NCBI RefSeq assembly: GCF_000374405.1
Contig: NZ_KB894282.1
Coordinates: 1-64,000 of the forward strand
Reading direction: 5' to 3'
Length of the DNA stretch: 64,000 nt
DNA from: Riemerella columbina DSM 16469
GTDB taxonomy: Bacteria; Bacteroidota; Bacteroidia; Flavobacteriales; Weeksellaceae
Positions 1 to 22,654 of this stretch are shown in pieces; position 1 is the first letter of the stretch, and every line of letters begins with the position of its first letter. The position numbers and the translations under genes were made by a program. The notes under the pieces were generated by a model. That model worked only from the letters and a program-made list of their open reading frames with translations, made no database searches and was not told the origin of the DNA.

Positions 1-67
1 ACTAATATAAGCACTAATAGTGGAATAATAACAAAAAGAAAAAAATAAAACCTAAAACTAATTAACT

Positions 68-716: not shown

Positions 717-746
717 AACGCCGAGGGAGGATAGGCGATAAAAATT

Positions 747-856
747 GTCCTCCAACAAATTAAAAAACTTCCTACGGTAATTTAATTTAGCACAAAGCCC
801 ACAGTTGGAGGACTAAAAAGTCTTCTGATTGTGGGTTTTGTATTTATTACCGTAGG
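747..856 (+). other. Structured RNA candidate, interlocking inverted repeats
   Basis: GTCCTCCAAC (747-756) is exactly complementary to GTTGGAGGAC (804-813). CCTACGGTAAT (771-781) is exactly complementary to ATTACCGTAGG (846-856). CCCACA (798-803) pairs with TGTGGG (830-835). The first pairing crosses the second, so a single RNA could form a pseudoknot or switch between two folds. It lies between the HExxH gene and the Mom-like gene, ending 30 nt before the latter's ATG, so it could be a leader regulating that gene. No known RNA family was recognised. Confidence 0.5.
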
Positions 857-886
857 AGCGACAAAAATAAACAAAAAAACAAAACT

Positions 887-1624: not shown

Positions 1625-1661
1625 ACACCGCTTAAACGGACATTAAATTTAGGATAAAAAA

Positions 1662-1698
1662 CAGGCTCTAATGTAATCATCAGAGCCTTATTTTTTTT
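1662..1698. terminator. Bidirectional intrinsic terminator
   Basis: AGGCTCT and AGAGCCT flank a 12-nt loop and are followed by a T run on the plus strand. It ends the Mom-like gene and overlaps the stop codon of the convergent lipoprotein gene. It also marks the boundary between accessory segment and lipoprotein operon. Confidence 0.75.
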
Positions 1699-2299: not shown

Positions 2300-2303
2300 A
2301 ATT

Positions 2304-2858
2304 TTATTGATTTAAGGTTGTTACATTAATATCAAATCTTCCATCGGTAATTTGGATTTTTTCCGAGGGATTGTCTTCATTGTAAAGCGTTGCTGAAAAA
2401 GTTCCTGAAACTATCGGATAATCATATCTGGTAATGGTAATTAAACCCGAATGGTCTGACGAAAGGTATTTTTTATTATCTATTTCATAAAACATTTGAG
2501 AAAGCGTTTGGGATGTCCCTGTGCCATTACCATTCGATTGATTTATAGTGAAGTTTCCTGTTTTATTTTTACTCTGTACATATATGTATATACGTCTTTT
2601 TTCTTCAACATTATACAAATCTATATAATACCCAGGAGTATAATTACTTATGTCAATGGTTAATCCGTAAACAGTAGGAATTGCAGAAACTCCATTTTTA
2701 GGAACTAGTACCTTTCCGTTTACCAAACATCCTGCGGTATTAGCTCCGTTTTGGGTAATAGACGGAAGTTTTTCTTGAGCTTCCTCCGTTGTCCGGTCTT
2801 TACAAGTAGTAAATAATAGGCTTACTGACAAAACTGAAAATTTTAAAATTGTTTTCAT
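2304..2858 (-). CDS. Lipoprotein paralog 2 (DUF6252-like)
   Basis: 184-residue lipoprotein with signal peptide and lipobox FTTC (Cys 19). The first ~45 residues are almost identical to paralog 3, and the last ~35 (SGTFSATLYNEDNP, ITDGRFDINV) almost identical to paralogs 1 and 3, while the central ~90 residues diverge. Spacing to neighbours is 4 and 11 nt, so one operon is likely. The pattern of conserved ends and diverged centre suggests duplication with diversification or gene conversion. No enzymatic motif seen; function unknown. Confidence 0.75.
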   Translation of the reverse strand: MKTILKFSVLSVSLLFTTCKDRTTEEAQEKLPSITQNGANTAGCLVNGKVLVPKNGVSAIPTVYGLTIDISNYTPGYYIDLYNVEEKRRIYIYVQSKNKTGNFTINQSNGNGTGTSQTLSQMFYEIDNKKYLSSDHSGLITITRYDYPIVSGTFSATLYNEDNPSEKIQITDGRFDINVTTLNQ

Positions 2859-2869
2859 ATTTTAAACTA

Positions 2870-3475
2870 TTATTTAGGTTGCATTGTAATATTAATATCA
2901 AACCTTCCATCAGTAATTTGGATTTTTTCTGTAGGATTATCTTCATTGTAAACTATTCCAGAAAAAGTTCCAGAACAAACATTCTTTGTAAGTTTAGTTA
3001 TTGTTACTCTCCCTGAATTATCACCCGAAAGGTAAATGGCACCGCTAATATTATTATTTGTTTCTCTTACAAAAATGTAGGGATGATCTCCAATAGGGGC
3101 TATCTCGGCGTATCCGCGACCAATTGTGTATTCACCAACGCCATTTTTAAGATTATTCATATATAAATAAATCCAATATGATTTTCCTTTATCTTTTAAA
3201 TTTGAAATTTTTAAGGATAAATAATCATCCCCTAATATAGGTGTATAAAAATTAGCACCTATATATCCTCCTAACCCTCTAACTTTATGTCCACTTATAG
3301 AGTTTATACCATCTTTGGGAACTAAAATGTAACCATTGATGACACACCCTGCGGTATTAGCTCCGTTTTGAGTAATAGGAGGAAGTTTTTCTTGAGCTTC
3401 CTCCATTGTTCGATCTTTACAAGTAGTAAGTAATAGGCTTACTGACAAAACTGAAAATTTTAAAATTGTTTTCAT
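2870..3475 (-). CDS. Lipoprotein paralog 3 (DUF6252-like)
   Basis: 201-residue lipoprotein, lipobox LTTC (Cys 19), then the family block ITQNGANTAGC. Here the segment after the block reads VINGYILVPKDG rather than the NGKV form of the siblings. The middle is Gly/Tyr rich and unlike the siblings; the C-terminal ITDGRFDINI block is retained. It sits 19 nt after paralog 4 and 11 nt before paralog 2 in the same orientation. Exported lipoprotein of unknown function. Confidence 0.75.
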   Translation of the reverse strand: MKTILKFSVLSVSLLLTTCKDRTMEEAQEKLPPITQNGANTAGCVINGYILVPKDGINSISGHKVRGLGGYIGANFYTPILGDDYLSLKISNLKDKGKSYWIYLYMNNLKNGVGEYTIGRGYAEIAPIGDHPYIFVRETNNNISGAIYLSGDNSGRVTITKLTKNVCSGTFSGIVYNEDNPTEKIQITDGRFDINITMQPK

Positions 3476-3494
3476 AATTTATATAGATTTAAGA

Positions 3495-4025
3495 TTAGTC
3501 AAATTTTTTATCAAATCGTCCTTCTGTAATGTGAATTACATTACCCTTTTCATCTATAACATCAATCTCAAATGTCCCAGAGACTATATTTTTTGGAATA
3601 TCTAAACGAGTTATTTTTATTTTACCTCTTGACTTATTAGGTTTTGAATAATATGTATTTCCGTTTACAGAATAAGACATTCCTATGCTATTATATTCAT
3701 CAATAAATATAGGGATATCATATGTATGATTAATAATAAAATTCTCTTTATCTAATATAATATGTATTCTACTATTATCAGAAATGCTTCTTAAGTCAAC
3801 TCGTATTCTAGTAGAGTTTTTATCACTCATTGCATATGTTCCTAATCCCCCTATTGGATTTATAAACTTCTTACTGGCGACCCATACTTTACCATCCACT
3901 AAGCAACCAGCAGTATTTGCACCCGTTTGAGTAGCCGCAGGTAATACATCTGGATCGGCATCTCTTTCTTTACAGCTTACTATAATTAAGCTAATCAATA
4001 AGATTAAAAATAATTTGGTTTTCAT
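3495..4025 (-). CDS. Lipoprotein paralog 4, most divergent (DUF6252-like)
   Basis: First gene of the lipoprotein run. I start it at the ATG giving MKTKLFLILL; an ATG three codons upstream (4034) is possible. Lipobox IVSC with Cys 18. It keeps the family block (TQTGANTAGC, DGKVWV) and the C-terminal GTFEIDV and ITEGRFDKKF segments but is otherwise the most diverged of the four, so it may be the ancestral copy from which 1-3 arose. 176 residues. Function unknown. Confidence 0.75.
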   Translation of the reverse strand: MKTKLFLILLISLIIVSCKERDADPDVLPAATQTGANTAGCLVDGKVWVASKKFINPIGGLGTYAMSDKNSTRIRVDLRSISDNSRIHIILDKENFIINHTYDIPIFIDEYNSIGMSYSVNGNTYYSKPNKSRGKIKITRLDIPKNIVSGTFEIDVIDEKGNVIHITEGRFDKKFD

Positions 4026-4106
4026 AATGTACATAGATTTAAAAAGTTAATAATTACTATACCCCCGTAAAGTTAATAAAAATTTTAATTCAAAAGCCAT
4101 TTCATT

Positions 4107-9357: not shown

Positions 9358-10278
9358 CTAAAGTTCTACCTCAAAGGATGTCAGTTTTTTAAACTCATTA
9401 ATTCGGGCTCTTAGCTTTTCTTCGTCCACTTCAATCAATCGTTCTGTACCAAATTTTTCTACGGTAAAAGATGCCATTGCAGAACCTACAATCAATGCCA
9501 TTTTCATATTTTCAAAACTGAAATTCTGGGTTTTAGACAAATATCCTGCAAAACCACCTGCAAAAGTATCGCCCGCACCAGTTGGGTCAAATACTTCCTC
9601 TAAAGGCAAGGCTGGAATGGCAAAAACCTGATGCTCATTAAACAACAAAGCGCCGTGTTCCCCTTTTTTGATAATCACAAAATGTGGCCCTAGCTCCTGA
9701 ATTTTCTGTGCCGCTTTTACTAGCGAATATTCCCCAGAAAGTATTCGGGCTTCTTCATCATTAATACAAATAATATCCGTTTGTGCTATAATCTCTAAAA
9801 GAGCGTCCCAAGTATGAGTCATCCAGAAATTCATAGTATCCAAAATCACCACTTTTGGTCTTTGGTTCATTTGTTTTAAAACCGACATTTGGACTTTAGG
9901 ATGTAAATTTCCTAGCAATAACATCTCTGCATTTTTTGCAATATTTGGAACTTTAGGGTCAAAATTTTCCAAAACATTCAGTTCAGTAGTAATGGTATCT
10001 CGGGCGTTTAAATCATTATGATACTTTCCAGACCAAAAGAAAGTTTTCCCCTCTTCTATCACCTCTACCCCATCAATATTGATGTTTCTGTCCGTCATCA
10101 TTTTTAGTCCATCTTTAGGAAAATCGCCCCCGACTACAGAGACTAGGCAAACGCTAGAATCCAATACCGATGCCGAAAGCCCGATGTAAGTGGCTGCCCC
10201 ACCAAGGGTTTTATCTGTCTTCCCAAACGGGGTTTCTATAGCATCAAAAGCAATGGTTCCTACGGCTAAAAGTTTCAT
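9358..10278 (-). CDS. PfkB-family sugar/nucleoside kinase
   Basis: 306-residue ribokinase-like kinase. Seen: GGAATYIGLS at 26-35 (substrate lid region), INDEEARIL at about 172-180, and the family signature DPTGAGDTFAGGF at 231-243 containing the catalytic Asp (about 237) and anion hole. Substrate is not evident from sequence; homologues in this phylum are annotated as sugar or adenosine kinases. It is 30 nt upstream of gldD in coordinates and follows gldD on the minus strand, so the two may share a transcript. Confidence 0.85.
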   Translation of the reverse strand: MKLLAVGTIAFDAIETPFGKTDKTLGGAATYIGLSASVLDSSVCLVSVVGGDFPKDGLKMMTDRNINIDGVEVIEEGKTFFWSGKYHNDLNARDTITTELNVLENFDPKVPNIAKNAEMLLLGNLHPKVQMSVLKQMNQRPKVVILDTMNFWMTHTWDALLEIIAQTDIICINDEEARILSGEYSLVKAAQKIQELGPHFVIIKKGEHGALLFNEHQVFAIPALPLEEVFDPTGAGDTFAGGFAGYLSKTQNFSFENMKMALIVGSAMASFTVEKFGTERLIEVDEEKLRARINEFKKLTSFEVEL

Positions 10279-10308
10279 ATTAATCTATTATGTTAGTTTT
10301 TGTTAGTT

Positions 10309-10872
10309 CTATTTCTGCCATTTAAAAGTTTCTATTAAATGCAGTATATCTTGTTTTATATAATCTATGGCAGGCGCCAAAGAATCTGGCTTAGGTCGTG
10401 TATTAAAATAAAGATTTCCCGTTACAAAATGATGGGTGCTATCGGTAATATAAAACTGAATATTAGAGGCCGTTTCTCCTTTTAATTCATAAAAATTACC
10501 AAAGACCTGATGTTCGGGATAGCTAAACGATTTGGTTTCTATAGCCGATGCTTTTATGGTGTGCTCGTAGACCATCTTTTCGGCTTCTTTTATATGCAAA
10601 TTAAAATCGTTTTTTATAGGGAAGTAAGTGATAAAAACATTAGCTTTCATCTTTGGGTAGCTTAGATTATACCAGCATGGGGTTTGCTTGGCACCAGAAA
10701 TTGTTGCAAAATCGGAATACTCAAAACCATATCCGCAAGGGCTTTTAAAATCTTGATATTGAGCCTGCGGATATTCCAATCTAAGTTCACCTTTTGGTTT
10801 GGGAACAGTCTCCTGCTGACACCCTGCCAACACTGCTAAACCAAAGCCATACACTACTATCTTCTTATACAC
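10309..10872 (-). CDS. gldD: Gliding motility lipoprotein GldD
   Basis: 187-residue lipoprotein with lipobox LAGC (Cys 18) and the GldD-type sequence (YPKMKANVFITYFPI, YELKGETASNIQFYITDS, HFVTGNLYF). GldD is required for gliding and type IX secretion in flavobacteria. The start codon is GTG at 10872, and a TATATTTG element ends exactly 4 nt before it, so the mRNA may be leaderless. The gene begins about 95 nt from the leader-distal end of the CRISPR array and is transcribed away from it. Identification is by family resemblance. Confidence 0.9.
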   Translation of the reverse strand: MYKKIVVYGFGLAVLAGCQQETVPKPKGELRLEYPQAQYQDFKSPCGYGFEYSDFATISGAKQTPCWYNLSYPKMKANVFITYFPIKNDFNLHIKEAEKMVYEHTIKASAIETKSFSYPEHQVFGNFYELKGETASNIQFYITDSTHHFVTGNLYFNTRPKPDSLAPAIDYIKQDILHLIETFKWQK

Positions 10873-10876
10873 TTTG

Positions 10877-10884
10877 CAAATATA
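10877..10884 (-). promoter_or_regulatory. -7 element of gldD, leaderless spacing
   Basis: TATATTTG on the minus strand followed by CAAA and then the GTG start. With the usual distance from this element to the start site, transcription would begin at or next to the start codon. Confidence 0.5.
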
Positions 10885-10967
10885 ATATTTTTAGTGATAA
10901 GAGTACTATATCCTTCTTTAGATTTTAAAATTTTACTATGCGAAATAGCATCTATTTTTCTTTATTG

Positions 10968-11989
10968 GTATCAATGCTGATACAATCCAATTATAAGGGG
11001 TACTTTGAAAGGTGATTTAGTGCCTCAAACCAAATTTCAATGCTGATACAATCCAATTATAAGAATCAGCTGCCTCCTCAGTTTTAAGTGTAAGTTTAAT
11101 TTCAATGCTGATACAATCCAATTATAAGCTGGAATTACGAAACTACTGCTTATAACTTTTGAAATTTCAATGCTGATACAATCCAATTATAAGTATTTTT
11201 AAATTATTTTAAATTATTTTGTAACTGCTATTTCAATGCTGATACAATCCAATTATAAGTAGAAAGAACCCAAAGATTTAGGGAGCAGAACTCATTTCAA
11301 TGCTGATACAATCCAATTATAAGTATTTTTAAATTATTTTAAATTATTTTGTAACTGCTATTTCAATGCTGATACAATCCAATTATAAGATGGTGTGTAT
11401 TTAGGTGAGAATCTTTTTTTAAGAAGATTTCAATGCTGATACAATCCAATTATAAGTGGGGGTATTTTCAAAGAAAAGAACCTAAATTTTCATATTTCAA
11501 TGCTGATACAATCCAATTATAAGGAAAGGGAACAACCAACTGACAAGCGATAAATTACATATTTCAATGCTGATACAATCCAATTATAAGAATCAATAAC
11601 TTAATCCTGATGCTACTGTAACCTCCATTTCAATGCTGATACAATCCAATTATAAGACATTAGACCACTATGGTTAATGTTATAGCCTTACCATTTCAAT
11701 GCTGATACAATCCAATTATAAGTAAATTTAAACGAAAAGCAGAAGGTTATACCCGCCGATTTCAATGCTGATACAATCCAATTATAAGTTTTTTGTTATC
11801 CTGTATATATATATATATGTATGTAATTTCAATGCTGATACAATCCAATTATAAGACTTTTTACACATCTCTCCACTTGCTTCAATCGCTTATTTCAATG
11901 CTGATACAATCCAATTATAAGTTTTAAATTTTTTTTAAATTTTTTGCTTTCTAAAAATTATTTCAATGCTGATACAATCCAATTATAAG
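10968..11989 (-). CRISPR. Type I-B CRISPR array, 16 repeats, 15 spacers
   Basis: A 30-nt repeat recurs 16 times with spacers of 34-38 nt. On the minus strand it begins CTTATAATTGG and ends GCATTGAAAT, the usual I-B 5' handle, so crRNA is read on the minus strand and the leader is on the right beside cas2. Repeat starts: 10968, 11034, 11099, 11164, 11230, 11294, 11360, 11427, 11494, 11561, 11627, 11693, 11759, 11826, 11892, 11960. The leftmost repeat has lost its handle (GTATC for ATTTC on the plus strand), as expected at the old end. Spacers at 11194-11229 and 11324-11359 are identical. Spacer 11922-11959 is next to the leader and should be the newest. Confidence 0.97.
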
Positions 11990-12039
11990 CCGTTATCCCA
12001 AAAATAACAACTCTTTGATTTTCAATAGTAAAATCACAG

Positions 12040-12047
12040 CAAATATA
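12040..12047 (-). promoter_or_regulatory. Putative -7 element driving the CRISPR array
   Basis: TATATTTG on the minus strand fits TAnnTTTG; transcription would start near 12033-12036 and give a ~45-nt leader before the first repeat. No good -33 TTG is visible. Confidence 0.5.
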
Positions 12048-12063
12048 CGACTTTTTTGGTAAA

Positions 12064-12113
12064 ATTGTCGTCTACCCTCAATGATATGATTACCCCCTAG
12101 GATAGACGACAAT
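12064..12113 (-). terminator. Hairpin between cas2 and the array, possible cas operon terminator
   Basis: A 15-bp inverted repeat with one mismatch (arms 12064-12078 and 12099-12113, outer part ATTGTCGTCTA) around a 20-nt loop. On the minus strand the stem is followed by TTTTA, so it may end the cas transcript before the array promoter. It could also be a protein-binding site used in spacer integration. Confidence 0.5.
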
Positions 12114-12195
12114 ATAATTATCTATATTTCAACCTATTATAAATTTTATTTTTTCAGTATGTCAAAGAACGCTTCTATTTTGGGTAGTTCGACGA

Positions 12196-12459
12196 CTACA
12201 AAAAGTTATCCAAATCATTTTTTTCCTTACCTACCACTTGCTTATCCAACCATTTTTCATCGCGTGATTTGAAAATGATTAGACTGTCTTCCTCCTCATC
12301 CATGATTTGTTTGGCTTTGGCAATTAATTCTTTAAGTTTCACCTCGCTAATCGCTCCCTCGAAAACACTATTTTGTATCCAATTGAGGTATTGTCTGCAC
12401 AATTTGAGCATCTTAGCAACGCGTTTTTCTCCTATATCATAAACCAAAATACAGTACAC
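12196..12459 (-). CDS. cas2: Cas2, adaptation endonuclease-fold protein
   Basis: With the GTG start at 12459 the protein is 87 residues and begins VYCILVYDIG, the typical first strand of Cas2 with its conserved Asp (residue 8). A TTG nine codons upstream (12486) would add a segment uncharacteristic of the family, so I prefer the GTG. The core (KLCRQYLNWIQNSVFEG, then a strand SLIIFKS) is also typical. Cas2 joins Cas1 in the integrase complex that inserts new spacers at the leader. Last cas gene; 41 nt after cas1; followed by the leader. Confidence 0.93.
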   Translation of the reverse strand: MYCILVYDIGEKRVAKMLKLCRQYLNWIQNSVFEGAISEVKLKELIAKAKQIMDEEEDSLIIFKSRDEKWLDKQVVGKEKNDLDNFL

Positions 12460-12500
12460 TTTCCAAAATTTTATGTAAATATACAACTTTTATTCTTTTT

Positions 12501-13505
12501 TTACCACCGCGCCTTAAAGGCTTGATATTCCTCAATTCCCATGATTTGCTTTACGATTTTATAGCACTCCAATTTTATCAGATGCTTGTAACTAACACTT
12601 TTATTAAGCGTACGGTGTTTAATGGTTTCATTTAGTTTTTCTTCCCAAGAGCGCAATACTTTCTTACACCCCGATTCCTTTAACAAACAACTATTGAGGT
12701 GTCTATCGAAATCAGAAGTCTGAATTTGCTTTTTATTCATCAAAGAGAAAATCAAACGATCGACCAAAATAGGCTTAAAAATTTCCGCTAAATCCAACGC
12801 CAACGAGTACCGACGAAATCCTGGCTCGTGCAAAAAACTAATCGTAGGGTTCAACTGTGTATGGTACAATTGATCCAAACAAGTGGTATAGCACATCATA
12901 TTGAGAAACGAAATCAGAGCATTCACTTCATTATTAGGTGGTTGCTTCACTCGGTTATTCATCTCAAAATCATTGATAATTTCCCCAAAACATTCGTAAT
13001 AAGTCATTCGAATATTCCCTTCAATCCCCATCAACTCATCAACCTCTTGGGTTTTCGGTATTTGCTCGATATATTGTTCAATAGCGTCTATTTGGGTAGC
13101 AACTTGCTTCTCTCTTTTGGCATAATATTTCAGATTTCGAAGCATATTATACGCTCCTCCCGACACAAATTTTTGAGCCAAATCCATTCGTTTTTGTTGG
13201 TTTGAATAATGCTTCACTTGCTGTACGACCACCTTCCCGCTCAACAAATAATCTTTGGGCATAAAACTCCCCGTATAATGCTCATAATAATCGAAAAAGT
13301 GTACTGGAATTTGATTTTTACCCAAAAAATTATACATCGCTGAGTTGGCATCTAACGCACCAAAACAATATAAATTTTTCACTCCCTCAACAGGAATATA
13401 TTTGGCTTGACCTTCCTTACCCTCTTTATCTACAGGTATGAATTTCAATGTATTGTCCTTTCGTGAAAGGCGACCGGGATTGAATAAATAGTAACTTTTT
13501 TTCAT
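12501..13505 (-). CDS. cas1: Cas1 integrase, type I-B
   Basis: 334 residues, normal length. Starts with the I-B style MKKSYYLFNPGRLSRKDNTL. Metal-binding catalytic residues are visible: Glu 162 (GIEGNIR), His 226 (FLHEPGFRR) and Asp 238/Glu 241 (LALDLAEIFKP). Cas1 with Cas2 cuts and joins prespacers into the repeat next to the leader. The gene starts 16 nt after the stop of the AAA+ ATPase gene, tighter than the 100-nt gap on the other side of that ATPase. This suggests ATPase-cas1-cas2 as a transcriptional unit. Confidence 0.96.
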   Translation of the reverse strand: MKKSYYLFNPGRLSRKDNTLKFIPVDKEGKEGQAKYIPVEGVKNLYCFGALDANSAMYNFLGKNQIPVHFFDYYEHYTGSFMPKDYLLSGKVVVQQVKHYSNQQKRMDLAQKFVSGGAYNMLRNLKYYAKREKQVATQIDAIEQYIEQIPKTQEVDELMGIEGNIRMTYYECFGEIINDFEMNNRVKQPPNNEVNALISFLNMMCYTTCLDQLYHTQLNPTISFLHEPGFRRYSLALDLAEIFKPILVDRLIFSLMNKKQIQTSDFDRHLNSCLLKESGCKKVLRSWEEKLNETIKHRTLNKSVSYKHLIKLECYKIVKQIMGIEEYQAFKARW

Positions 13506-13521
13506 AGGTTTACGAAATTAT

Positions 13522-14718
13522 TTAGTAAAGAAAACCAAAAAGCCAAAGCGGAATTTTATGAGCAAATCCGACCTCGATACCATCCATCGCAATAAAAGCA
13601 TTGGAAATGCCCGCAATTTGCTTATTCGTCTTATTTTTTCCTCCAACTTCAAATGTATACTGACCATCCACCACAAAATCCCCTTTAGAGACTAAATTCA
13701 AAGTGTGATTTGCATTGCTCAATTGATTCAAAAAAAAGGTCTCTCGGATACTTCCCATATCAGCATTTGCCGTCATCGTGTGGGCTAAAGAGGTGTTTTC
13801 AAAATAAATCTTATCGGGTTTTTGCAATCGGCTCATTCCTTTACCCGTTCGGCTCATATTCCTAACCAATAAAGCATCTCCCAACTCATAAATATAATCA
13901 TACACTTTATTTCTACTGATATTCAATCGATTGGCAATTTTTGTAATATTTGGTTCAAAAGGTGGCGATTCAGCAATGATGCCCAATAGTTTTTTCAATT
14001 TATTGATATTTGCCGCACTATAATCCATAGAATTCATCAAATCTACTTCTAAAATAGTATTAACCACTTGAATGATTCTTTGATTAACCAAAGGGTCATC
14101 CTCATTTTTCACAAAAGGGAAATAACCATTCTTTAGATAAATCTGAAAATGAGGTAAAATCTTAATTTTCCCAACAATTTCTGAACTTATTTCGATATGA
14201 TGAGTGATGATATCCTCCAACGAATAGGCTTCAAAAGTCTGACCATATCTAAAATTCAGAAACTCTCGGAACGACATTCCATTCAAATTTTGAACGATAA
14301 GCCTTCTACTCAAATCCGATTCTCCTCGAAACAAATTCAAGGCGGAAGAACTGGTAAACAAAACCTGAAAATCAGGAAATCCGTCGTAGATAAGTTTCAA
14401 TTCTCTCGACCAATTTTCGTACTTATGAACCTCATCAATAATCAATAGTTTTCCACCCGACTGATACCACAACTGCGCCGTATCAAACAACGAATGGGTA
14501 TAGAAATAAGGATGATCGGCAGAAACATATAGTCCTTGTTTTTTATTCTCGTATTGATATTTCAGATATTGTAAAAGCAAAGTGGTTTTCCCAACCCCAC
14601 CCAGTCCCTTAATCCCCAACAGACGCTCGTTTGCATACAATTTGGGCAACAAATAGCGCGTAAAATTTTGATTCACCTGAGCCAAAACATAGGTCTGAAA
14701 TTGAAATAATTCTTCCAT
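13522..14718 (-). CDS. AAA+ ATPase with DUF4143-like C-terminus inserted in the cas operon
   Basis: 398 residues from the ATG at 14718; a TTG ten codons upstream is unlikely because it overlaps the promoter-like TATCTTAG. Domains: Walker A GLGGVGKTT (38-46), Walker B LLIIDEVHKYENW (91-103), sensor-like LFTSSSA (120-126), arginine-rich RGESDLSRR (131-139), winged-helix-like segment ITKIANRLNISRNKVYDY (about 258-275), and a C-terminal nuclease-like segment with Asp 347, Asp 351 and E357-V-G-G-K361. This is the DUF4143/AAA_14 family, usually stand-alone and of unclear role. Here it sits between cas4 and cas1 on the same strand, behind three 33-bp repeats. It might aid prespacer handling or be a passenger. 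Its base composition is not visibly unlike its neighbours. Confidence 0.85.
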   Translation of the reverse strand: MEELFQFQTYVLAQVNQNFTRYLLPKLYANERLLGIKGLGGVGKTTLLLQYLKYQYENKKQGLYVSADHPYFYTHSLFDTAQLWYQSGGKLLIIDEVHKYENWSRELKLIYDGFPDFQVLFTSSSALNLFRGESDLSRRLIVQNLNGMSFREFLNFRYGQTFEAYSLEDIITHHIEISSEIVGKIKILPHFQIYLKNGYFPFVKNEDDPLVNQRIIQVVNTILEVDLMNSMDYSAANINKLKKLLGIIAESPPFEPNITKIANRLNISRNKVYDYIYELGDALLVRNMSRTGKGMSRLQKPDKIYFENTSLAHTMTANADMGSIRETFFLNQLSNANHTLNLVSKGDFVVDGQYTFEVGGKNKTNKQIAGISNAFIAMDGIEVGFAHKIPLWLFGFLY

Positions 14719-14737
14719 AATGATGTTTTTTACCTCG

Positions 14738-14745
14738 CTAAGATA
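14738..14745 (-). promoter_or_regulatory. Putative -7 element of the ATPase-cas1-cas2 unit
   Basis: TATCTTAG on the minus strand, one base from the TATCTTTG form, 19 nt before the ATPase ATG; an upstream TTG lies in the first 33-bp unit. This would let the adaptation genes be transcribed apart from the interference genes. Confidence 0.4.
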
Positions 14746-14747
14746 CA

Positions 14748-14846
14748 AAATTGTTTTGTGCCAACAACATAATACAAACTAAATTGTTGCATAAATACAA
14801 CAAAAACAACCTAAAATTGTTTTCTAAGAACAACAAAACTACTTTC
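14748..14846 (-). repeat. Three iteron-like 33-bp units upstream of the ATPase
   Basis: AAATTGTT begins at 14748, 14781 and 14814, exactly 33 bp apart, and in every unit is followed after 8 nt by ACAACA (14764, 14797, 14830). In the first and third units TTGTT and AACAA form an inverted repeat around 7 nt. The array fills the whole gap between the cas4 stop and the ATPase promoter. Looks like a phased operator, perhaps bound by the ATPase's own winged-helix domain. Confidence 0.7.
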
Positions 14847-15382
14847 TACTCTTCTCCCGAGTAACAAAAATCACCATAACTACAACTTTTACAAATACGA
14901 GATTGCAATGTCGGTGGGCAATTTTCATCCTGAATTGTTTTCTGAATTTCGGGAATAAGTTTCGTTAATAATGTTCGTTCGGTATCGGACAAAAACACTT
15001 CTGTTGTAAGGCGAAGTTTGGGATATTCTATCTTGCCCGTTACCCCTTCAATACCATTGAGTTCAAAGAGCCAAATATAAAATTTGAGTTGCCATTCGTG
15101 GGCTTCCTCTACCTTGTTACCTCGTTTGGTTTCGTGTATGATTTTCTCTTTTCGGTCGTAAAAATCCACTTTTCCGTATAAAGCAACGGCATTCCATTGG
15201 GTTGATAATTCCACCTCGCTATATTTCTCTGCCCGTTGCGGATAAGAAATCTCGTGCAACAATTTTCCATCATACACCATATCTGAGGAATGCTCCATCG
15301 TAATGCCATTGGCGTGAAGCCAACATTCACGAGGACAAACAATATATAGATTGACCAAAGTAGCATTGATATTCCTCTTCAT
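14846..15382 (-). CDS. cas4: Cas4 nuclease
   Basis: 178 residues. RecB-type nuclease with an iron-sulfur cluster: N-terminal Cys 16/Cys 20 (CPREC), G-x-LLHE with His 43-Glu 44, Asp 73, Glu 84-x-Lys 86 (HETKRG), Gln 98 (EWQLKFYIW), and C-terminal Cys 164, Cys 167 and Cys 173. Cas4 trims prespacers and selects the PAM before Cas1-Cas2 integration. Its ATG overlaps the cas3 stop by one base (TGATG), so translation is coupled. The ATPase and repeat units separate it from cas1, with which Cas4 normally works. Confidence 0.95.
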   Translation of the reverse strand: MKRNINATLVNLYIVCPRECWLHANGITMEHSSDMVYDGKLLHEISYPQRAEKYSEVELSTQWNAVALYGKVDFYDRKEKIIHETKRGNKVEEAHEWQLKFYIWLFELNGIEGVTGKIEYPKLRLTTEVFLSDTERTLLTKLIPEIQKTIQDENCPPTLQSRICKSCSYGDFCYSGEE

Positions 15383-18183
15383 CAGATAAATAAGTTATCA
15401 ATCGCGTCGAACTCCCATTCCTTTAGCCCTAAAGTTTCATCGTAAATTTTCTTCCAATCTGATAGATAACAAAATCCATACACACTCTTTTCCATATCCA
15501 TAAATTCTTTCAGACGAATTTTATTTTTCTTGGAATTAAACATTGAAAACACAAATTTTGATAGAATTCCCTGCATTTTTTTCAAATGAATTACTCTTTG
15601 CTGATAAGATTGTGGATACTGAATCATCTCTAAATAAAAATCAAATACTTGCTTACCACAGATTTTCTGTTCATCATCTGGATAAATACCCGCTTCTGCC
15701 AAATAATCTAAATCCGAAGGTGTAAAAATTGACTCGTACTGACCTACCAAATCAATCTCTACGCAAATCGGCACCCGAATTGGCACGAAACAACTCAAAC
15801 TTTCTTGGTCTATTAGTTGGAATTCTTCGTGAACTGTCGAAAATTTCAACTTTCGGATGGCTTCAATATATTCCGCTATTCCAATAAATTCGATCCGTTT
15901 TTCCAATGTATTTTTATGGTCTAAAACTATTTGATAAAATTTATCAAAATCTTTAGTGTTCAAAATCATCTCCTTTTCTTCAGAAGACAATTGTTTTTCA
16001 GGAAATTGATAGCGCCAATCTTGACTATAAATGCTCCCTGCATTGTTGTAATTAAATAAAAATAATTGACAATGGCTCTTCTTAACATTTCGATTGATTC
16101 TTCCTGCCAATTGCTCATCACTATCCAATAGTGAGGTGTCTTTGAATCCCAAATCCATATCAATATCTACGCCTGCCTCTACCACTTGGGTTGTAATTAG
16201 CAAGATTTTTTTCGTACGATTTTCTTTCCTTTTGATAAAATTGATGATTTCTCTTCTACGATGGTGCAAAATGGTTCCCGATAACACAAAAACTTCGTCA
16301 AAAAAAGAAGCACTGATTTCGTCTATTTTTTTCTCAAAAAGTGTTGTTGAACTTTTGATGATAAATTCTACAATAGTAAACACACTCCCTTTGGGCTTAC
16401 TTTCTCCATAGTCTTGTTCGGCATATTCCTTTGATTTTTCCAAAACTATAGAAGCCAATTCTTTAAGTGTTATCTTATGTTGCACTAAAGAAAAATCAAC
16501 TTTTACTCTATCTGAGAAATTAGGGTTTTGAAAATATTCTGTTTTTGAATTGGGCAACAAAGAAATAATATCACTTTTAGCATCACCAATCGTGAGCATT
16601 CCTATTTTGGGCAGCGTTGCGGACATCAAAATAAATCGGATATTGTATAACTTAGCATACTGATTAAGAAGGTACATTACCTTATCCCAATGAATAGGAT
16701 TATAACTTTGTAATTCATCAATAATGACAATCGAATTTGCTAATCGGTGTAGTAAATAATTCGTTTCCTTTCGGTTAGATTTTAATACATCAAAAAATCG
16801 GATATGAGATAATAAGCAGATCGGATAATTGACAAACAGTTTATCAACCAAATTTCTTTTATCCGCTCCATATTGGTCATCTTCACTTATCTCATTTGCA
16901 AATGAAGTTTTAGAATGTAGAGCAACTATCTCTTTTTCATTTAATTGCAGATTAGTTTTAATACTCTCAAAAGTTTGGTCGATAAGGGTTGTGAATGGAA
17001 AAACATAATAGACCTTATTGATTTTTGAATCGTATCTCAGCAATTCCAAAGCCAACAACATTGAGATATTGGTCTTTCCTCCACCGGTGGGAGCTTCTAA
17101 ATAAAAAATGGGAGCGTTTTTATTTTTCCGAAGGGTTCGTATCGCCTCTGCCGCCATTTGTTGGCGTAGTAGGTTCAGATTTTCATTTGATTTTTCAGTA
17201 GGCTTTTCAAGGCTCAAAGTATTTAGCTCCTCAAAGGTTTTCTTATTAAAATTAACCTTTTGATTATCCTCATCCAAAAAGTCATCGGTTTGAATTTTAG
17301 AATATAATTCCTCTATTCTATGATTGTCAAAAGTCCCTAAATCTGTCACTTCCACTCCATTGATATAATCGTAAGTCGCTAAATAATCCGATGCTGTAAG
17401 CAGAGAATAATTTAGGCGTAAAAGTTGATACAAAGCAACCGATTCTTTATAAGGACCAAAAGCATTCCCTTTCCCTAAATAAAATTCCAATCTCTCTCGG
17501 GTTATTAAATCGACCGATTTCGAATTTTTAAATGGAATTGAAAATTGATTTAAATACCTTTTAAAGACCTCCACTCTTTTGGATTCTTCTAAAATATAAT
17601 CCCAAAAGTTATCTAAAAGAGCATAACTATGATGCCTATATATTCCATACGAAAACAAAAATGCCAATCCGAGCAAACAACTCCTCTCTTTATGCCCCGA
17701 GAAGCGATGCATAATCTCGTCGGTGGTATAAGATAAAAAAAGAAAACTACTCAAAGTAGAGTGCCTCGATTCAATACCATTTTCCTGATTTTCTTTTCCT
17801 TGAAAATGAGGATTTTTCATCTTCACAACTTGGAAATTCTCATTGACTTTTCCATGGTCGTGATAAGCAATACTTTTTATAAAAATTTCTTTTGTTATAT
17901 TGACCAACTCTGGCGAAACCTCAAACTGTACCTCTAAAAAATATTCTTCTATTAGCCGATTGATAACCTCATCCAAATGATGATTATCAACCAATTTCTG
18001 AGTGTATCCCAATACCCTATCGAGATGTTCTGCCAATGTTTCTGGAGCAACATTTCTATCGTTAGGTGGTGTGTGTGCATAGTAAGTGGATGCATTTAGA
18101 AGTGCCATCTCCACCCCATCACTTCCCAAATGATGTTTTATAATCTGTTCTACACTCTTATAACAACTGCACATAGGTTTCAT
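15382..18183 (-). CDS. cas3: Cas3 helicase-nuclease (HD plus DExH)
   Basis: 933 residues, the effector recruited by Cascade to unwind and degrade target DNA. The N-terminal HD nuclease has AYHDHGK (His 108-Asp 109), SRHSTL (His 141) and YRHH (184-185). The helicase has Walker A APTGGGKT (364-371), the DExH-type box IIDELQSY (about 487-494), VVEAGVDIDMDL and QLAGRINR in the C-terminal half. HD and helicase are in one polypeptide. The start overlaps the cas5 3' end by 26 nt, and the end overlaps cas4 by 1 nt. Confidence 0.96.
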   Translation of the reverse strand: MKPMCSCYKSVEQIIKHHLGSDGVEMALLNASTYYAHTPPNDRNVAPETLAEHLDRVLGYTQKLVDNHHLDEVINRLIEEYFLEVQFEVSPELVNITKEIFIKSIAYHDHGKVNENFQVVKMKNPHFQGKENQENGIESRHSTLSSFLFLSYTTDEIMHRFSGHKERSCLLGLAFLFSYGIYRHHSYALLDNFWDYILEESKRVEVFKRYLNQFSIPFKNSKSVDLITRERLEFYLGKGNAFGPYKESVALYQLLRLNYSLLTASDYLATYDYINGVEVTDLGTFDNHRIEELYSKIQTDDFLDEDNQKVNFNKKTFEELNTLSLEKPTEKSNENLNLLRQQMAAEAIRTLRKNKNAPIFYLEAPTGGGKTNISMLLALELLRYDSKINKVYYVFPFTTLIDQTFESIKTNLQLNEKEIVALHSKTSFANEISEDDQYGADKRNLVDKLFVNYPICLLSHIRFFDVLKSNRKETNYLLHRLANSIVIIDELQSYNPIHWDKVMYLLNQYAKLYNIRFILMSATLPKIGMLTIGDAKSDIISLLPNSKTEYFQNPNFSDRVKVDFSLVQHKITLKELASIVLEKSKEYAEQDYGESKPKGSVFTIVEFIIKSSTTLFEKKIDEISASFFDEVFVLSGTILHHRRREIINFIKRKENRTKKILLITTQVVEAGVDIDMDLGFKDTSLLDSDEQLAGRINRNVKKSHCQLFLFNYNNAGSIYSQDWRYQFPEKQLSSEEKEMILNTKDFDKFYQIVLDHKNTLEKRIEFIGIAEYIEAIRKLKFSTVHEEFQLIDQESLSCFVPIRVPICVEIDLVGQYESIFTPSDLDYLAEAGIYPDDEQKICGKQVFDFYLEMIQYPQSYQQRVIHLKKMQGILSKFVFSMFNSKKNKIRLKEFMDMEKSVYGFCYLSDWKKIYDETLGLKEWEFDAIDNLFI

Positions 18184-18931
18184 TCTCTACTAACTGATAC
18201 ACATCTGGCATCTTATTAGCATTATGGATTTGGTAATTAGTAAAAACCAATTCGTCTAAATGATATTGCATCAAATCGAGATTGAATCCCGTAGGTAATC
18301 GCTCAAAATACATAAAAGCGTCCTCCACATTCTCCATATCCAAATCAAAAAAATCCCAACCTCCGGAAGATGCTTCGCTGTGGTCCTTCACTACTTGATT
18401 TTTCTTAAAAAGACTTGCAAAAGAAGCATTCTTCTCAGGAGCTCCTTCCCTATATTGCCACTCTTTGAAATTACTCCACCAAGCGGTAAATTCATTTTTG
18501 CCAAGATAAGGAATATATTCCGATTGTCCTATTTGCAAGCGTTCTAAAAGCGTTTTTTGCTCAGGTTTCTGTTCATCCAACAAAATAAAGATACGATATT
18601 TTGGAGCAATCAAAGTAAGTTCTTCTGTAAGAAAATTCGTTCCTTTATTGGCATATCCCACCGTATTAGTATATTTAATAGGCGTTTTAGAAAAACTGCC
18701 TTTTTGGTGTTCTAATGGAGCAATTCCTACTTTTATATCCGATAATTTTTCGTAATATTCTGGTAATATTCCCTTTTCTTCATAGCCTCTAAGTCCAAGA
18801 ATAGCCCCCAAAATCCCGAGAATAGCGGGCTTATGTATCATATTATACGATACATTAAGCGTATTATTGGTTTCGGGCTTTCTAAAAAACGCAAAATCAC
18901 TTTGTATATCAAATGAAACTAACTTCATCAT
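18158..18931 (-). CDS. cas5: Cas5, type I-B Cascade subunit
   Basis: 257 residues. The N-terminus (KLVSFDIQSDFAFFRKPETN, then LGILGAILGLRGY) is the RAMP start of type I-B Cas5, which caps the 5' handle of the crRNA and contacts Cas8. The opening Met-Met leaves the exact start uncertain by one codon. Placed between cas7 and cas3, as in the standard I-B order, with 12 nt to cas7. No catalytic motif is expected when a separate Cas6 is present. Confidence 0.93.
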   Translation of the reverse strand: MMKLVSFDIQSDFAFFRKPETNNTLNVSYNMIHKPAILGILGAILGLRGYEEKGILPEYYEKLSDIKVGIAPLEHQKGSFSKTPIKYTNTVGYANKGTNFLTEELTLIAPKYRIFILLDEQKPEQKTLLERLQIGQSEYIPYLGKNEFTAWWSNFKEWQYREGAPEKNASFASLFKKNQVVKDHSEASSGGWDFFDLDMENVEDAFMYFERLPTGFNLDLMQYHLDELVFTNYQIHNANKMPDVYQLVENETYVQLL

Positions 18932-18943
18932 AAGAAAGGATTT

Positions 18944-19858
18944 TTATATCGTATGAAATACAGCGTTTTCAGGTGCATTTTCTACTTGGGTAACTGCCTT
19001 ATTATAATAAATTTCTACAGACTCTATTTCACTTGCCACTTCTTTTTGTAATAAGTAATCTTTGACTTTCGACAAATCAATTTTTCTATCTTTATCAATC
19101 TCTACAAATTCAATAAACGACGGCATTACTAACTTAGAACCTTCTTTAAGAGTTATCCAAAATAACAATTCATTTTCTGTACCTGATTTTGCTGAACTAT
19201 CATAAAAACTTGCTCCTTTTCGCAAACCTTCTTTTAATTTTTCAATATCATCGGTTGTTAATCCTTCTATACCTACTCGCGAAGTATCTTCTTCAATATT
19301 TTTAGGATTTACTGAAAAATGATGTACATAGTGCCCCTCTTCCAACTTCGATTGTGTTCCCAAAGTTGTCATCGTACTATCTTTGCTTTTTTCATTCGAA
19401 TTCTTAAAAGGCGACATAATTTGCTCTGAATAAATCACATTCTCAGGAAAGCGATTGACCCCGTGCGTAATTTGACAAGTCCCATGAATAGAAACATTAG
19501 TTGCTCCTGCATAAGTACCTCCAAATAACTTCACATCTAAAACTGAAAGTATATTTTTCAGAATTTCTTTGCGAAGCCCCGCTCCTTTTTTCTCTTTAGT
19601 TTTACCAAAATGCAACTCATAGGTTTCGTCCAATGTACGAGGAGCCATATCATCAGAAAGGGATTTGAAATAAAACACTTTCTCGCCCAAAGCATTCTTC
19701 CAATAATTTCTGATTGAATATTTTAACGCCTTATCTGTGGCATAAACAATTCCATTAGGCAGGCGTCTTGGTTGTCCCGAAAAGTCGGCATTATAATTAG
19801 AATTGATAGACTTGACAATAGCAAATCCGTACACGCGGTTATTAAATTTTTGTGCCAT
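18944..19858 (-). CDS. cas7: Cas7 (Csh2-type), Cascade backbone
   Basis: 304 residues. The N-terminal sequence RVYGFAIVKSINSNYNADF followed by RLPNGIVYATDKALKYSIRNYW is typical of type I-B Cas7/Csh2, the subunit that polymerises along the crRNA spacer. HGTCQITHGVNRF and SKDSTMTTLGTQSKLEEGHYVHHF in the middle are also family-like. It lies 3 nt after cas8b and 12 nt before cas5, so expression is likely stoichiometrically linked in one operon. Confidence 0.95.
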   Translation of the reverse strand: MAQKFNNRVYGFAIVKSINSNYNADFSGQPRRLPNGIVYATDKALKYSIRNYWKNALGEKVFYFKSLSDDMAPRTLDETYELHFGKTKEKKGAGLRKEILKNILSVLDVKLFGGTYAGATNVSIHGTCQITHGVNRFPENVIYSEQIMSPFKNSNEKSKDSTMTTLGTQSKLEEGHYVHHFSVNPKNIEEDTSRVGIEGLTTDDIEKLKEGLRKGASFYDSSAKSGTENELLFWITLKEGSKLVMPSFIEFVEIDKDRKIDLSKVKDYLLQKEVASEIESVEIYYNKAVTQVENAPENAVFHTI

Positions 19859-19861
19859 AAT

Positions 19862-21826
19862 TTATGAGTTTTCGTTTGTTTTATCAGAATTAGAAAATAA
19901 TTGATTTTTCGCAAAAACCCCCGATAATATTTGAGGTTGCAAATCTTTCATATTGATTGATGTATCGTGAGTAAGCACTAAGGCTGATACTTTCCTAAAC
20001 TTTTCAGAAAAATTCTCGTGACTGTAGCGTTGAAAATCCTCTGTAATTCTCTGTTGCAAAGCACTACAATTTGTCTTTTGTAAGTATGGGTCTATCAATC
20101 GATAACTTGTATCATCTGATTTGCTTTTAGAAGTCAGATAGTAAATGACTTGACCAACAGCAAATGCAAATTGCTCATCTGTAACTTTTTCGGCATCAAC
20201 TCTATCATTGATTAAATCCCCAATAAAGTTTTGATATTCTTTTAGTTTGTTTGCCATAGTAGGTTTATTTTTATCCGTTTTATCAAAAAATTCGTATAAA
20301 CTATACCAAAGGTTTAGTTTCTCTTTAATTCCATAGCCATTATTATTTTTTAAATCATCCAAAATACCATTAAAGACCATTTCGGTAAATTCTTTAACCC
20401 CAATAGTTTTTCGGTCAGATTTGTAAACAAAATCATAGACCGCCTTTCTATATTTACTATATGATAAAAATGTTAAATCGCGATTTTCGTAGTCTTCCTT
20501 TTTAAAATCCGAAAAATAATCTACACGATGGTATTTATTTTGTATTAAGTATTTCAGTACTTTGTCCTCCAAATCAAATACGGTTTTCAGAAATGGATAA
20601 CGCATGAAATCTTTCCCTCCTTTTTCTTTGATTTCAAAATAATTGGAAATATTCAATCCATTTTTATCATCTGTCAGATAATAATTGAATTTAGCCACAA
20701 AATCAAAATCGTTGAATACAATTCCATTTTGTGTATTCGCCCATTGAAGTAAGTAATAATTTTGAAAATCCTCCGAATAATCCTGATAGAAAGTTTTTGC
20801 CAAATCCCTAAAATTCAATCGCTCTTCCTTATAAAAAGCAAATACTCTTTTTTTAAACTCATCATTATAAATGAAAATAGGCAACGGATTGGGCAGCGTT
20901 TTTCTTGGCATTACCTTACTCAATTCGTAAAGCGTCTTTGCGTCTTTATTTGAGATTCTACCTGTAATATCAAAAGTTGCTGTTTGATGCATCAAAAATG
21001 GCATATTCGAATTAAAACCATTAAGGAAATCATTAGTTCCATAGATAAGACCTTCGTCGTTAGGTTCTGTATTATAATCCGAAGTATTGAAAAGTTTATC
21101 CGCTAAGTACCTATCATGAGCCGATTGATAACTATCCAAAGGCAAATCCAAATAGAATAAGATATAATCCCCCTCATCTAAAGGCTGCACTTCCATCATT
21201 TGATACTGAAGACTTTTTATTTCTTCTTTAAGTCTCATCTTTTCTTGCTTATCATTGGTAGCCTTTAAGTCATTTTGAAGCCCATCTAATTTATGTTCAA
21301 AATGTTGATATTTTGTCTGTCTAACATTCAATATATCCTCTAAAACTACCTCCCAAGAACCTTTAACCATAAAATCTTTAAATGAAGAAAATGCTCTTTG
21401 TAATCGCTCATCTTCACTAACTAAATTTATTGCATTATCGAAATATTTCTCTTCAAATCGCTCGTATATTTGAGGTTTGTTTTTCTCTTCGTTAGCAATG
21501 TATTTCGCTCCTTCTCTTAGGTGTTCTTTTTTAAAACCGATACAATAGGGCGAACAAGTATGTATGGCTTTAATTGGTAAATCAAAACATTTGTTTGTAT
21601 TTACACACCAAGCATTTTCCTGCAAACGCATACATTGCTCCAAAAGAGGACTTAACTCCTCTCGCTTTTTGTGATAGTAGTCAAAAGAAATCGAATCCGA
21701 TTGCATATTTAATTCCCCATTATCTTTCAGCGAAACCAAAATATGCAACCCAGACTTGGGCATTAGCCCCAAACTTTTAAATTCTTCAGACAAAGACTCT
21801 GTATAATTGATTAACTCTCTTAGCAT
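19862..21826 (-). CDS. cas8b: Cas8b (Csh1/TM1802 type), Cascade large subunit
   Basis: 654 residues, in the usual range for the I-B large subunit that recognises the PAM and helps load target DNA. Seen: four cysteines at about 74, 80, 91 and 95 (WCVNTNKC, HTCSPYC), a probable zinc-binding knuckle found in many TM1802/Csh1 proteins, a charged helical stretch at about 180-215, and an extended C-terminal helical region. The family diverges quickly, so the call rests on length, Cys pattern and position between cas6 and cas7. Confidence 0.9.
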   Translation of the reverse strand: MLRELINYTESLSEEFKSLGLMPKSGLHILVSLKDNGELNMQSDSISFDYYHKKREELSPLLEQCMRLQENAWCVNTNKCFDLPIKAIHTCSPYCIGFKKEHLREGAKYIANEEKNKPQIYERFEEKYFDNAINLVSEDERLQRAFSSFKDFMVKGSWEVVLEDILNVRQTKYQHFEHKLDGLQNDLKATNDKQEKMRLKEEIKSLQYQMMEVQPLDEGDYILFYLDLPLDSYQSAHDRYLADKLFNTSDYNTEPNDEGLIYGTNDFLNGFNSNMPFLMHQTATFDITGRISNKDAKTLYELSKVMPRKTLPNPLPIFIYNDEFKKRVFAFYKEERLNFRDLAKTFYQDYSEDFQNYYLLQWANTQNGIVFNDFDFVAKFNYYLTDDKNGLNISNYFEIKEKGGKDFMRYPFLKTVFDLEDKVLKYLIQNKYHRVDYFSDFKKEDYENRDLTFLSYSKYRKAVYDFVYKSDRKTIGVKEFTEMVFNGILDDLKNNNGYGIKEKLNLWYSLYEFFDKTDKNKPTMANKLKEYQNFIGDLINDRVDAEKVTDEQFAFAVGQVIYYLTSKSKSDDTSYRLIDPYLQKTNCSALQQRITEDFQRYSHENFSEKFRKVSALVLTHDTSINMKDLQPQILSGVFAKNQLFSNSDKTNENS

Positions 21827-21883
21827 AAGTACAGAATATTTCTCTTCAAAGGTATATAATTATTTGTTAAAAACAAAAATATT

Positions 21884-22654
21884 TTAATTCTTTCTCTTCA
21901 CCTCACAATACCCCATTCCCAGCGACGCATTCATTGTTCCAAAACCTCCGAGATAGCCGATTTCTTGTAATTCTTTGGGTGCAGATAATTCAAAATCGAA
22001 AAGATAACCTTTGACTTTTGTTTGCTTGATTTTCCAAAGTTTGGCTTTGGGCTCGGTAGTTAATAATTTAAACTGTACTTCTTCTTTGTCAAATCGTTTT
22101 TCTCCAAGATAAGCATTCGCTTTGTCCACCAAATTAGAAATAAAAGCCTCAGCATAGCGTGTATCCGCAGGGTGTAAATATTCCGCGTGATTGTTACCCT
22201 CAGTACCCACAGAAATACAAATAGGCGTTTGGGCACGATAACGCATTTGTTCCTGCCACTCGGGTAAGGTTTGCAATTGCACTTGATTGACCATTCCCAA
22301 AAACTTAAAGCGAGTTCCTGATTTGAGTTCCATTAAATTGTTTTGAAACAGGCTTTTTACCATATTTTTAGCCCCTTGGTCGATGTTAAAAGAAAGAATT
22401 AAGCGAGTGGGTGCTTCTTGAAGTTCAAAAATTTGTTCTTTTGGATGGATTTTAAACCGTTGCGGACGAAGCATCGAAAAGCAAAAATGCTTGTATTTTT
22501 TCCCATTGATTTCATAGCCTCGTTCGTGTAGCCATTTGGAAAAATCAGCATCCGAGCGGTGCAAAGTGTGGTAAATCCAACTCGAAATAAGGTATGGATA
22601 GTTAATCGGTAATTTTTGGTTTGGTAAGTGATCTATGGTCAATTCTATACGCAT
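21884..22654 (-). CDS. cas6: Cas6 pre-crRNA endoribonuclease
   Basis: 256 residues. Two RAMP folds are implied, with the C-terminal glycine-rich loop GYLGGFGTMNASLGMGYCEV (about 233-252) that defines Cas6. Histidines in the N-terminal half (SSWIYHTLHRSD at about 25-36) are candidates for catalysis. Cas6 cuts within the repeat to leave the 8-nt ATTGAAAT-type handle. First gene of the cas operon; no perfect promoter was found in the 145 nt upstream. Confidence 0.95.
   Translation of the reverse strand: MRIELTIDHLPNQKLPINYPYLISSWIYHTLHRSDADFSKWLHERGYEINGKKYKHFCFSMLRPQRFKIHPKEQIFELQEAPTRLILSFNIDQGAKNMVKSLFQNNLMELKSGTRFKFLGMVNQVQLQTLPEWQEQMRYRAQTPICISVGTEGNNHAEYLHPADTRYAEAFISNLVDKANAYLGEKRFDKEEVQFKLLTTEPKAKLWKIKQTKVKGYLFDFELSAPKELQEIGYLGGFGTMNASLGMGYCEVKRKN

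What the first reader, a model, noticed from the sequence alone, without database searches (positions are those of the whole stretch)
13522..14718. AAA+ ATPase with nuclease-like tail embedded between cas4 and cas1 of a type I-B locus
Seen: Walker A (GLGGVGKTT), Walker B (LLIIDEVHKY), a winged-helix-like segment and a C-terminal D..EVGGK pattern, in the same orientation, 16 nt before cas1. Known: DUF4143/AAA_14 ATPases are normally stand-alone and not part of I-B operons; Cas4 normally neighbours Cas1 in I-B. Inference: it may be an adaptation accessory factor (for example prespacer processing or control of Cas1-Cas2), or a passenger gene exploiting a safe site.
Basis: partly seen in the sequence, partly recalled or inferred. 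Interest (0 to 1): 0.78.

Follow-up and report, generated by a model that had tools for sequence, protein, structure and literature searches.

The report
Self-regulated ATPase passenger inside CRISPR operon
An ATPase gene that carries its own promoter and its own apparent DNA control sites has slipped between two CRISPR spacer-capture genes; it looks like a travelling, self-regulated (probably defence) gene using a popular landing spot rather than a new part of the CRISPR machinery.

Summary
An intact AAA_14+DUF4143 ATPase gene (13522-14718, minus strand) lies between cas4 and cas1 of a complete I-B locus.

It is best read as an autonomous single-gene cassette, not an adaptation factor:
- In the closest I-B relative cas4 and cas1 overlap by 4 bp; the window's extra ~1.34 kb starts and ends at that overlap.
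- The same order occurs once more, on an Emticicia plasmid. There cas4 and cas1 are dead and the ATPase is intact; its nearest kin (Runella) is outside CRISPR.
- The cas4/cas1 junction is a landing site: 17 of 41 Bacteroidota loci have >=300 bp there (RAYT, four-helix, GxxExxY, ORF6N and others), against 1 of 41 at cas1-cas2.

Unexpected finding: this ATPase subfamily carries tandem palindromes 32-33 bp apart over its own promoter, in 74% of 165 homologues against about 2% in controls. Half-sites diverge with the protein and co-vary most with its winged-helix recognition helix. The window's sites have no other perfect match in its genome, so the gene looks autoregulated and does not visibly control cas.

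The family matches PADLOC candidate PDC-S01, common and untested. Four other homologues sit in CRISPR loci, roughly ten-fold above a crude expectation. Defence is plausible but unproven.

The parts
13522..14718 (-). AAA_14 + winged helix + DUF4143 ATPase (398 aa), PDC-S01-like
   Evidence: ORF; Pfam; PADLOC; model pLDDT 93.6
14719..14845 (-). 127-bp regulatory leader of the ATPase, inserted with the gene
   Evidence: absent from the empty cas4/cas1 junction of the closest relative G042
14814..14833 (-). operator-like palindrome unit 1, TTGTTCTTAGAAAACAATTT
14781..14800 (-). operator-like palindrome unit 2, TTGTATTTATGCAACAATTT (33 bp from unit 1)
14748..14767 (-). operator-like palindrome unit 3, TTGTTGGCACAAAACAATTT (33 bp from unit 2), in the promoter spacer
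14738..14745 (-). probable Bacteroidota -7 box TATCTTAG (consensus TAnnTTTG)
   Evidence: read from sequence; consensus from own knowledge
13506..13521 (-). 16 bp between ATPase stop and cas1 ATG, part of the insert
14846..15382 (-). cas4 (intact; its last codon and stop lie at the insertion boundary)
12501..13505 (-). cas1 (I-B, TIGR03641)
12196..12486 (-). cas2 (true start probably GTG at 12459)
10968..12006 (-). CRISPR array, 16 repeats
15382..22654 (-). cas3, cas5b, cas7, cas8b, cas6 (rest of the I-B operon)

Best explanation
The ATPase is an autonomous single-gene cassette (promoter + tandem operators + ORF, about 1.34 kb) that landed between cas4 and cas1 without breaking either gene. 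The AAA+ domain is of the SSO1545/STAND-Orc type and carries a winged helix that most likely binds two or three palindromes spaced 33 bp (three helical turns) over its own promoter. Neighbouring bound subunits would sit on the same DNA face and repress the gene. A signal or nucleotide switch would release it, and the degenerate PD-(D/E)XK-like tail would be the effector. Its role is most likely a stand-alone defence function (PDC-S01) independent of the CRISPR system. Shown by sequence: the insertion, the conserved operator architecture, its co-variation with the protein, purifying selection, and independence from live cas genes. Inferred: binding, repression, release, effector activity and defence.
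For: Insertion: G042 (Cas4 79%, Cas1 82% identical) reads GGAGAAG|TATGAAAAA; the window reads GGAGAAG-[about 1.34 kb]-TATGAAAAA. Independence: Emticicia has cas4 and cas1 with stops and a truncated cas1, with an intact ATPase between. Its closest relative is Runella's ATPase (74% aa, support 100), beside dinB and a recombinase. The window's nearest (L051 56%, L197 53%) have no cas nearby. Docking site: gaps >=300 bp at cas4/cas1 in 17/41, cas1/cas2 1/41, upstream of cas4 2/34; the recognisable inserts are unrelated families. Operators: at least two copies of one palindrome in 47/95 upstreams (shuffles 0.4%, downstream 1%), replicated in 25/70 new loci (shuffles 0.1%). The 32/33-bp unit score is >=22 in 74% of 165, against 2% in shuffles, 0.6-1.8% at other lags and 1.8% of 1,088 other genes. 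Co-variation: half-site similarity 0.93 at 70-79% protein identity against 0.55 for DNA between sites; the top protein position is N270 in the recognition helix. Private sites: the only two perfect genome matches lie at this promoter. Selection: dN/dS about 0.05-0.18 in eight pairs. Family: PDC-S01 2e-27.
Against: Autoregulation is a comparative inference; no binding data exist. About a quarter of homologues lack a strong tandem unit, and the specificity signal at N270 comes from 190 related, non-independent pairs. Defence is unsupported by most neighbours, which are housekeeping genes. CRISPR loci hold more copies than expected (5 of about 165 including the window), which leaves room for a functional link. 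Several of those loci are MAG contigs.
Confidence: 0.72

Rival explanations
1. Adaptation accessory: the ATPase processes prespacers or controls Cas1-Cas2, hence its place between cas4 and cas1.
For: Same order found twice (window, Emticicia), and a third copy lies just upstream of cas6-cas1 in Draconibacterium; all three fall in one 15-row clade with support 100.
Against: Emticicia keeps the ATPase while cas4/cas1 are dead; nearest kin are non-CRISPR; 0 of 66 other Cas1b genomes have a close copy next to cas1; unrelated genes occupy the same spot in about a dozen loci; other CRISPR-linked copies sit at array ends.
Confidence: 0.07
2. Selfish passenger without host benefit: a mobile single-gene element that persists by self-regulation and occasional copying.
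For: Patchy distribution (11/246 family genomes, 0 of 5 other genus members), up to 6 copies per genome (G003), a preference for sites just behind a same-strand gene (58/85), several phyla mixed in the tree.
Against: No transposase in the cassette, and no terminal repeats or target duplication seen at the window's insertion; dN/dS well below 1; integrases or Y1 transposases are adjacent in only a handful of loci.
Confidence: 0.2
3. Regulator of the CRISPR locus: the winged helix binds the leader or cas promoter.
For: Winged helix and operator sites adjacent to cas genes.
Against: Genome-wide, perfect operator matches occur only at the ATPase promoter and one-mismatch hits elsewhere (22) are not far above the reversed-pattern control (14); none lie at the leader or upstream of cas6.
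Confidence: 0.05

Closest known systems
PDC-S01 (PADLOC single-gene phage defence candidate; AAA_14 + DUF4143)
   Same: Profile match 2e-27 over residues 36-360; single gene; PDCs were nominated by 'guilt-by-embedding' (PMC12988326), and this gene is itself embedded in a defence operon.
   Different: Divergent from the profiles (94 bits); subfamily motif E-V-G-G-x-x-K; carries 33-bp-spaced self-operators, not mentioned in the passages read.
SSO1545 / PABY2304 archaeal ATPases and NB-ARC/STAND proteins (CED-4, plant NLRs)
   Same: Best structural matches over residues ~10-320: Z 15.7 (2fna, 262 aligned, 4.2 A), 15.5 (2qen, 261, 4.3 A), 15.1 (CED-4, 255, 4.5 A).
   Different: 13-14% identity; tail 321-398 differs and was hardly tested.
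IniR (mycobacterial STAND-like regulator with SSO1545-type AAA+ domain, PMC5760070)
   Same: SSO1545-like AAA+ joined to a DNA-binding domain; acts in transcription.
   Different: MalT-like sensor and LuxR-type DNA-binding domain; regulates iniBAC rather than itself.
Other cas4/cas1 inserts (RAYT, 23S_rRNA_IVP, GxxExxY/PDDEXK_3, ORF6N, PRiA4_ORF3)
   Same: Single unrelated genes at the same junction.
   Different: Other families, mostly shorter; no ATPase.

Membership tests
AAA_14 (PF13173) | Profile score above gathering cut-off; Walker A and B | tested here: met
   86.8 bits vs 27; G38, G41, G43, K44, D95, E96 invariant in 84 sequences
DUF4143 (PF13635) | Profile score above cut-off | tested here: met
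   38.3 vs 28.1 bits, residues 246-349
PD-(D/E)XK nuclease | D...(D/E)-x-K active site in a restriction-type core | tested here: inconclusive
   D347 invariant, E357 and K363 about 98% but spaced E-x5-K; tail alone modelled at pLDDT 52, so its fold was not compared
PDC-S01 | PADLOC profile match | tested here: met
   94.1 bits, E=2.1e-27
PDC-S01 | Anti-phage activity | not testable with these tools
   The family is described as experimentally unvalidated (PMC12988326)
Cas adaptation accessory protein | Recurs with cas4/cas1 in independent lineages | tested here: inconclusive
   Two cases at this junction (window, Emticicia) but 0 of 66 other Cas1b genomes
Cas adaptation accessory protein | ATPase history follows the cas locus | tested here: not met
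   The two ATPases are each closer to non-CRISPR homologues (quick tree; identity)
Cas adaptation accessory protein | Lost or decayed when cas genes decay | tested here: not met
   Intact between dead cas4 and cas1 in Emticicia
Type I-B CRISPR-Cas locus (context) | cas6-cas8b-cas7-cas5b-cas3-cas4-cas1-cas2 with array | tested here: met

The most novel reading that the evidence does not exclude
A very common candidate defence family (PDC-S01) includes a subfamily that is a self-regulated, portable module. Its winged helix co-diversifies with tandem 33-bp-spaced operators, so each copy is insulated from its paralogues, and it nests preferentially in CRISPR-Cas loci, where it could guard or back up the CRISPR system when that is inhibited or decays.
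Probability: 0.15. Interest if true: 0.82.

Novelty: new variant of a known kind. Interest (0 to 1): 0.5.

Why it matters
PDC-S01 is reported as the fourth most common defence candidate in prokaryotes (PMC12988326) and I found no described mechanism. A conserved operator array that co-varies with the protein's recognition helix gives a directly testable handle: what it binds, when it is switched on, and why several copies can coexist in one genome. Separately, the cas4/cas1 junction as a frequent docking site warns against naming new 'adaptation factors' from their place in a cas operon.

Tried and rejected
- Adaptation-factor reading: weighed against 41 cas4-upstream-of-cas1 loci and ATPase searches of 66 Cas1b genomes; not supported.
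- Regulation of cas by the ATPase: genome-wide operator scan found no other perfect sites.
- Site-specific integration: the window and Emticicia inserts enter at the same place, but the cas4 stop overlaps the cas1 start in relatives, so only this point leaves both genes intact. The coincidence is forced and is no proof of targeting.
- PDB by sequence: nothing convincing. Foldseek top hits are generic AAA+; VIA-align gave SSO1545-type.
- C-terminal domain alone: single-sequence model failed (pLDDT 52); no restriction-type fold could be tested.
- Literature on DUF4143: one passing mention only. No paper found on inserts between cas4 and cas1 or on these operators; the embedding paper itself did not appear in the library searches.
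- Phage and virus collections: 1 GenBank phage record and 5 IMG/VR contigs, so not a mainly viral gene.
The careful tree did not finish; the quick tree was used.
- Array-like repeats at L073, L080 and L126 flagged by script were not counted: L126 is a short tandem repeat on inspection, the other two have MAG-like short repeats and were not examined further.

Full report
OBSERVATION. The locus is a complete I-B set (cas6, cas8b, cas7, cas5b, cas3, cas4, ATPase, cas1, cas2) with a 16-repeat array. Pfam gives AAA_14 and DUF4143 over their cut-offs; PADLOC gives PDC-S01, E=2e-27.

INSERTION. In the closest I-B relative found (G042: Cas4 79%, Cas1 82% identical) the cas4 stop overlaps the cas1 start. 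Aligning the two sites gives GGAGAAG|TATGAAAAA (empty) and GGAGAAG-[about 1.34 kb]-TATGAAAAA (window). So ORF plus leader was added with neither gene broken. None of five other genomes of the genus has the ATPase; in the family 11 of 246 do, scattered, up to six copies in one genome.

A LANDING SITE. Among 41 Bacteroidota Cas1b loci with cas4 upstream of cas1, 17 have 300 bp or more between them. The cas1-cas2 junction has one of 41 (Fisher p=2e-5) and the junction upstream of cas4 two of 34. Pfam on the inserts finds four-helix 23S_rRNA_IVP, GxxExxY (PDDEXK_3), ORF6N, PRiA4_ORF3 and a PolB-type exonuclease. Three more encode RAYT-like proteins: the naming rests on their sequence, with one weak sub-threshold Y1_Tnp hit. 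Some gaps hold no recognisable gene. The junction therefore tolerates many unrelated passengers, and position alone says little about function.

RECURRENCE. A second cas4-ATPase-cas1 order lies on Emticicia oligotrophica pEMTOL02 (L050). There cas4 carries stops and cas1 is stop-ridden and truncated after about 107 codons, while the ATPase is intact. That ATPase is 74% identical to one on a Runella plasmid, outside CRISPR (support 100), and only 50.5% to the window's. The window's groups with L051 and L197, also outside CRISPR. Two separate entries are the simplest reading. Further CRISPR-linked copies: Draconibacterium L060/L059 between cas3 and cas6-cas1; G069 at the trailer end of an array of at least 58 repeats, whose last repeat is truncated; and a horse-faeces Bacteroidaceae MAG (L123), 36 bp from a short type II array beside a frameshifted cas9. 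That is 4 of about 164 besides the window. By length (about 10 kb per CRISPR locus, half of genomes, 3 Mb) I expect about 0.3, so there is roughly ten-fold enrichment. This is a crude estimate without a matched control family. It fits either defence-gene nesting or simple tolerance.

THE CASSETTE REGULATES ITSELF (inferred). Looking for what the 127-bp leader holds, I found three units AACAATTT starting about 103, 70 and 37 bases before the ATG, exactly 33 bp apart, each half of a palindrome. The whole subfamily shows the same architecture with other sequences: at least two copies of one palindrome in 47 of 95 upstream regions, against 0.4% in dinucleotide shuffles, 1% downstream and 0% in coding sequence. 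It replicated in 70 loci not used for discovery: 36% against 0.1%. With a score that tolerates mismatches, 74% of 165 upstreams have a 32/33-bp tandem palindrome, against 2% in shuffles, 0.6-1.8% at other spacings and 1.8% of 1,088 other genes in the same loci; several top-scoring controls are paralogues of this ATPase or genes that appear to share its upstream region. In the window and in Emticicia the sites overlap a Bacteroidota-type promoter (consensus from own knowledge).

PROTEIN AND SITE CO-VARY. At 70-79% protein identity half-sites are 93% alike, while the DNA between sites is at background, 55%. Among pairs matched for overall identity, the position whose residue best predicts a shared half-site is N270, with S268, Y273 and I276 also high; these lie on or just before the winged-helix recognition helix 269-281. 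The pairs are not independent, so this is suggestive. In the window genome the only two perfect matches are at this promoter; one-mismatch hits elsewhere (22) are not far above the reversed-pattern control (14) and none is at the CRISPR leader or cas promoter. Autoregulation, not control of cas, follows as an inference.

STRUCTURE AND SELECTION. The AlphaFold model (79 sequences, pLDDT 93.6) matches SSO1545 (Z 15.7, 262 aligned, 4.2 A), PABY2304 (15.5) and CED-4/NLR NB-ARC proteins over residues ~10-320. The tail has D347, E357 and K363 nearly invariant, but as E-x5-K instead of E-x-K, and could not be modelled alone; nuclease activity stays open. dN/dS of roughly 0.05-0.18 in eight close pairs with measurable dS shows selection for function.

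NEIGHBOURS. Of 121 immediate neighbours, eight are other PDC-S01-type ATPases, three integrases, two Y1 transposases and two Fic; most are ordinary metabolic or translation genes. The upstream gap is usually over 100 bp (median 181), and the upstream neighbour is on the same strand in 58 of 85. This fits a gene with its own promoter dropped behind other genes.

VERDICT. The placement is real but the ATPase is a guest. The unexpected result is a conserved, protein-matched operator array in part of one of the commonest untested defence-candidate families.

Noticed in passing
L166 (G398:C5:109000-117000), between cas4 and cas1: A predicted 3'-5' exonuclease (DNA_pol_B_exo2, 1.8e-15) sits between cas4 and cas1; of all the inserts this is the one whose activity would suit prespacer trimming.
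   Followed up: no
L190, L192, L195 (cas4/cas1 gaps): RAYT-like transposase genes, two of them with many short repeated units, inside I-B cas operons.
   Followed up: partly
L123:9237-9565 and 9883-13425: Short type II array with ~47-nt repeats next to a cas9 split by a frameshift, a GxxExxY-like gene and an ATPase copy.
   Followed up: partly
L235 (G069:C32:1-14000), 25-3880: CRISPR array of at least 58 repeats without cas genes in the stretch read, ending in a truncated repeat directly before an ATPase copy.
   Followed up: partly
window 11164-11259 and 11294-11389: Two identical repeat-spacer units: one spacer is duplicated in the array, two units apart.
   Followed up: no
window 12065-12112: 13-bp inverted repeat (TTGTCGTCTATCC...GGGTAGACGACAA) in the leader between cas2 and the array.
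   Followed up: no
window 1688-4034: Four tandem paralogous lipoprotein-like genes sharing CKxR...NGANTAGC.
   Followed up: no
window contig's genome G000, C1:25331-26020: A second, unrelated Cas1 in the same genome, probably of a type II system.
   Followed up: no
G003 (same family), L005, L014-L018: Six divergent copies of this ATPase subfamily in one 3-Mb genome; the copies whose palindromes scored differ in half-site, as insulation of paralogues would predict.
   Followed up: partly
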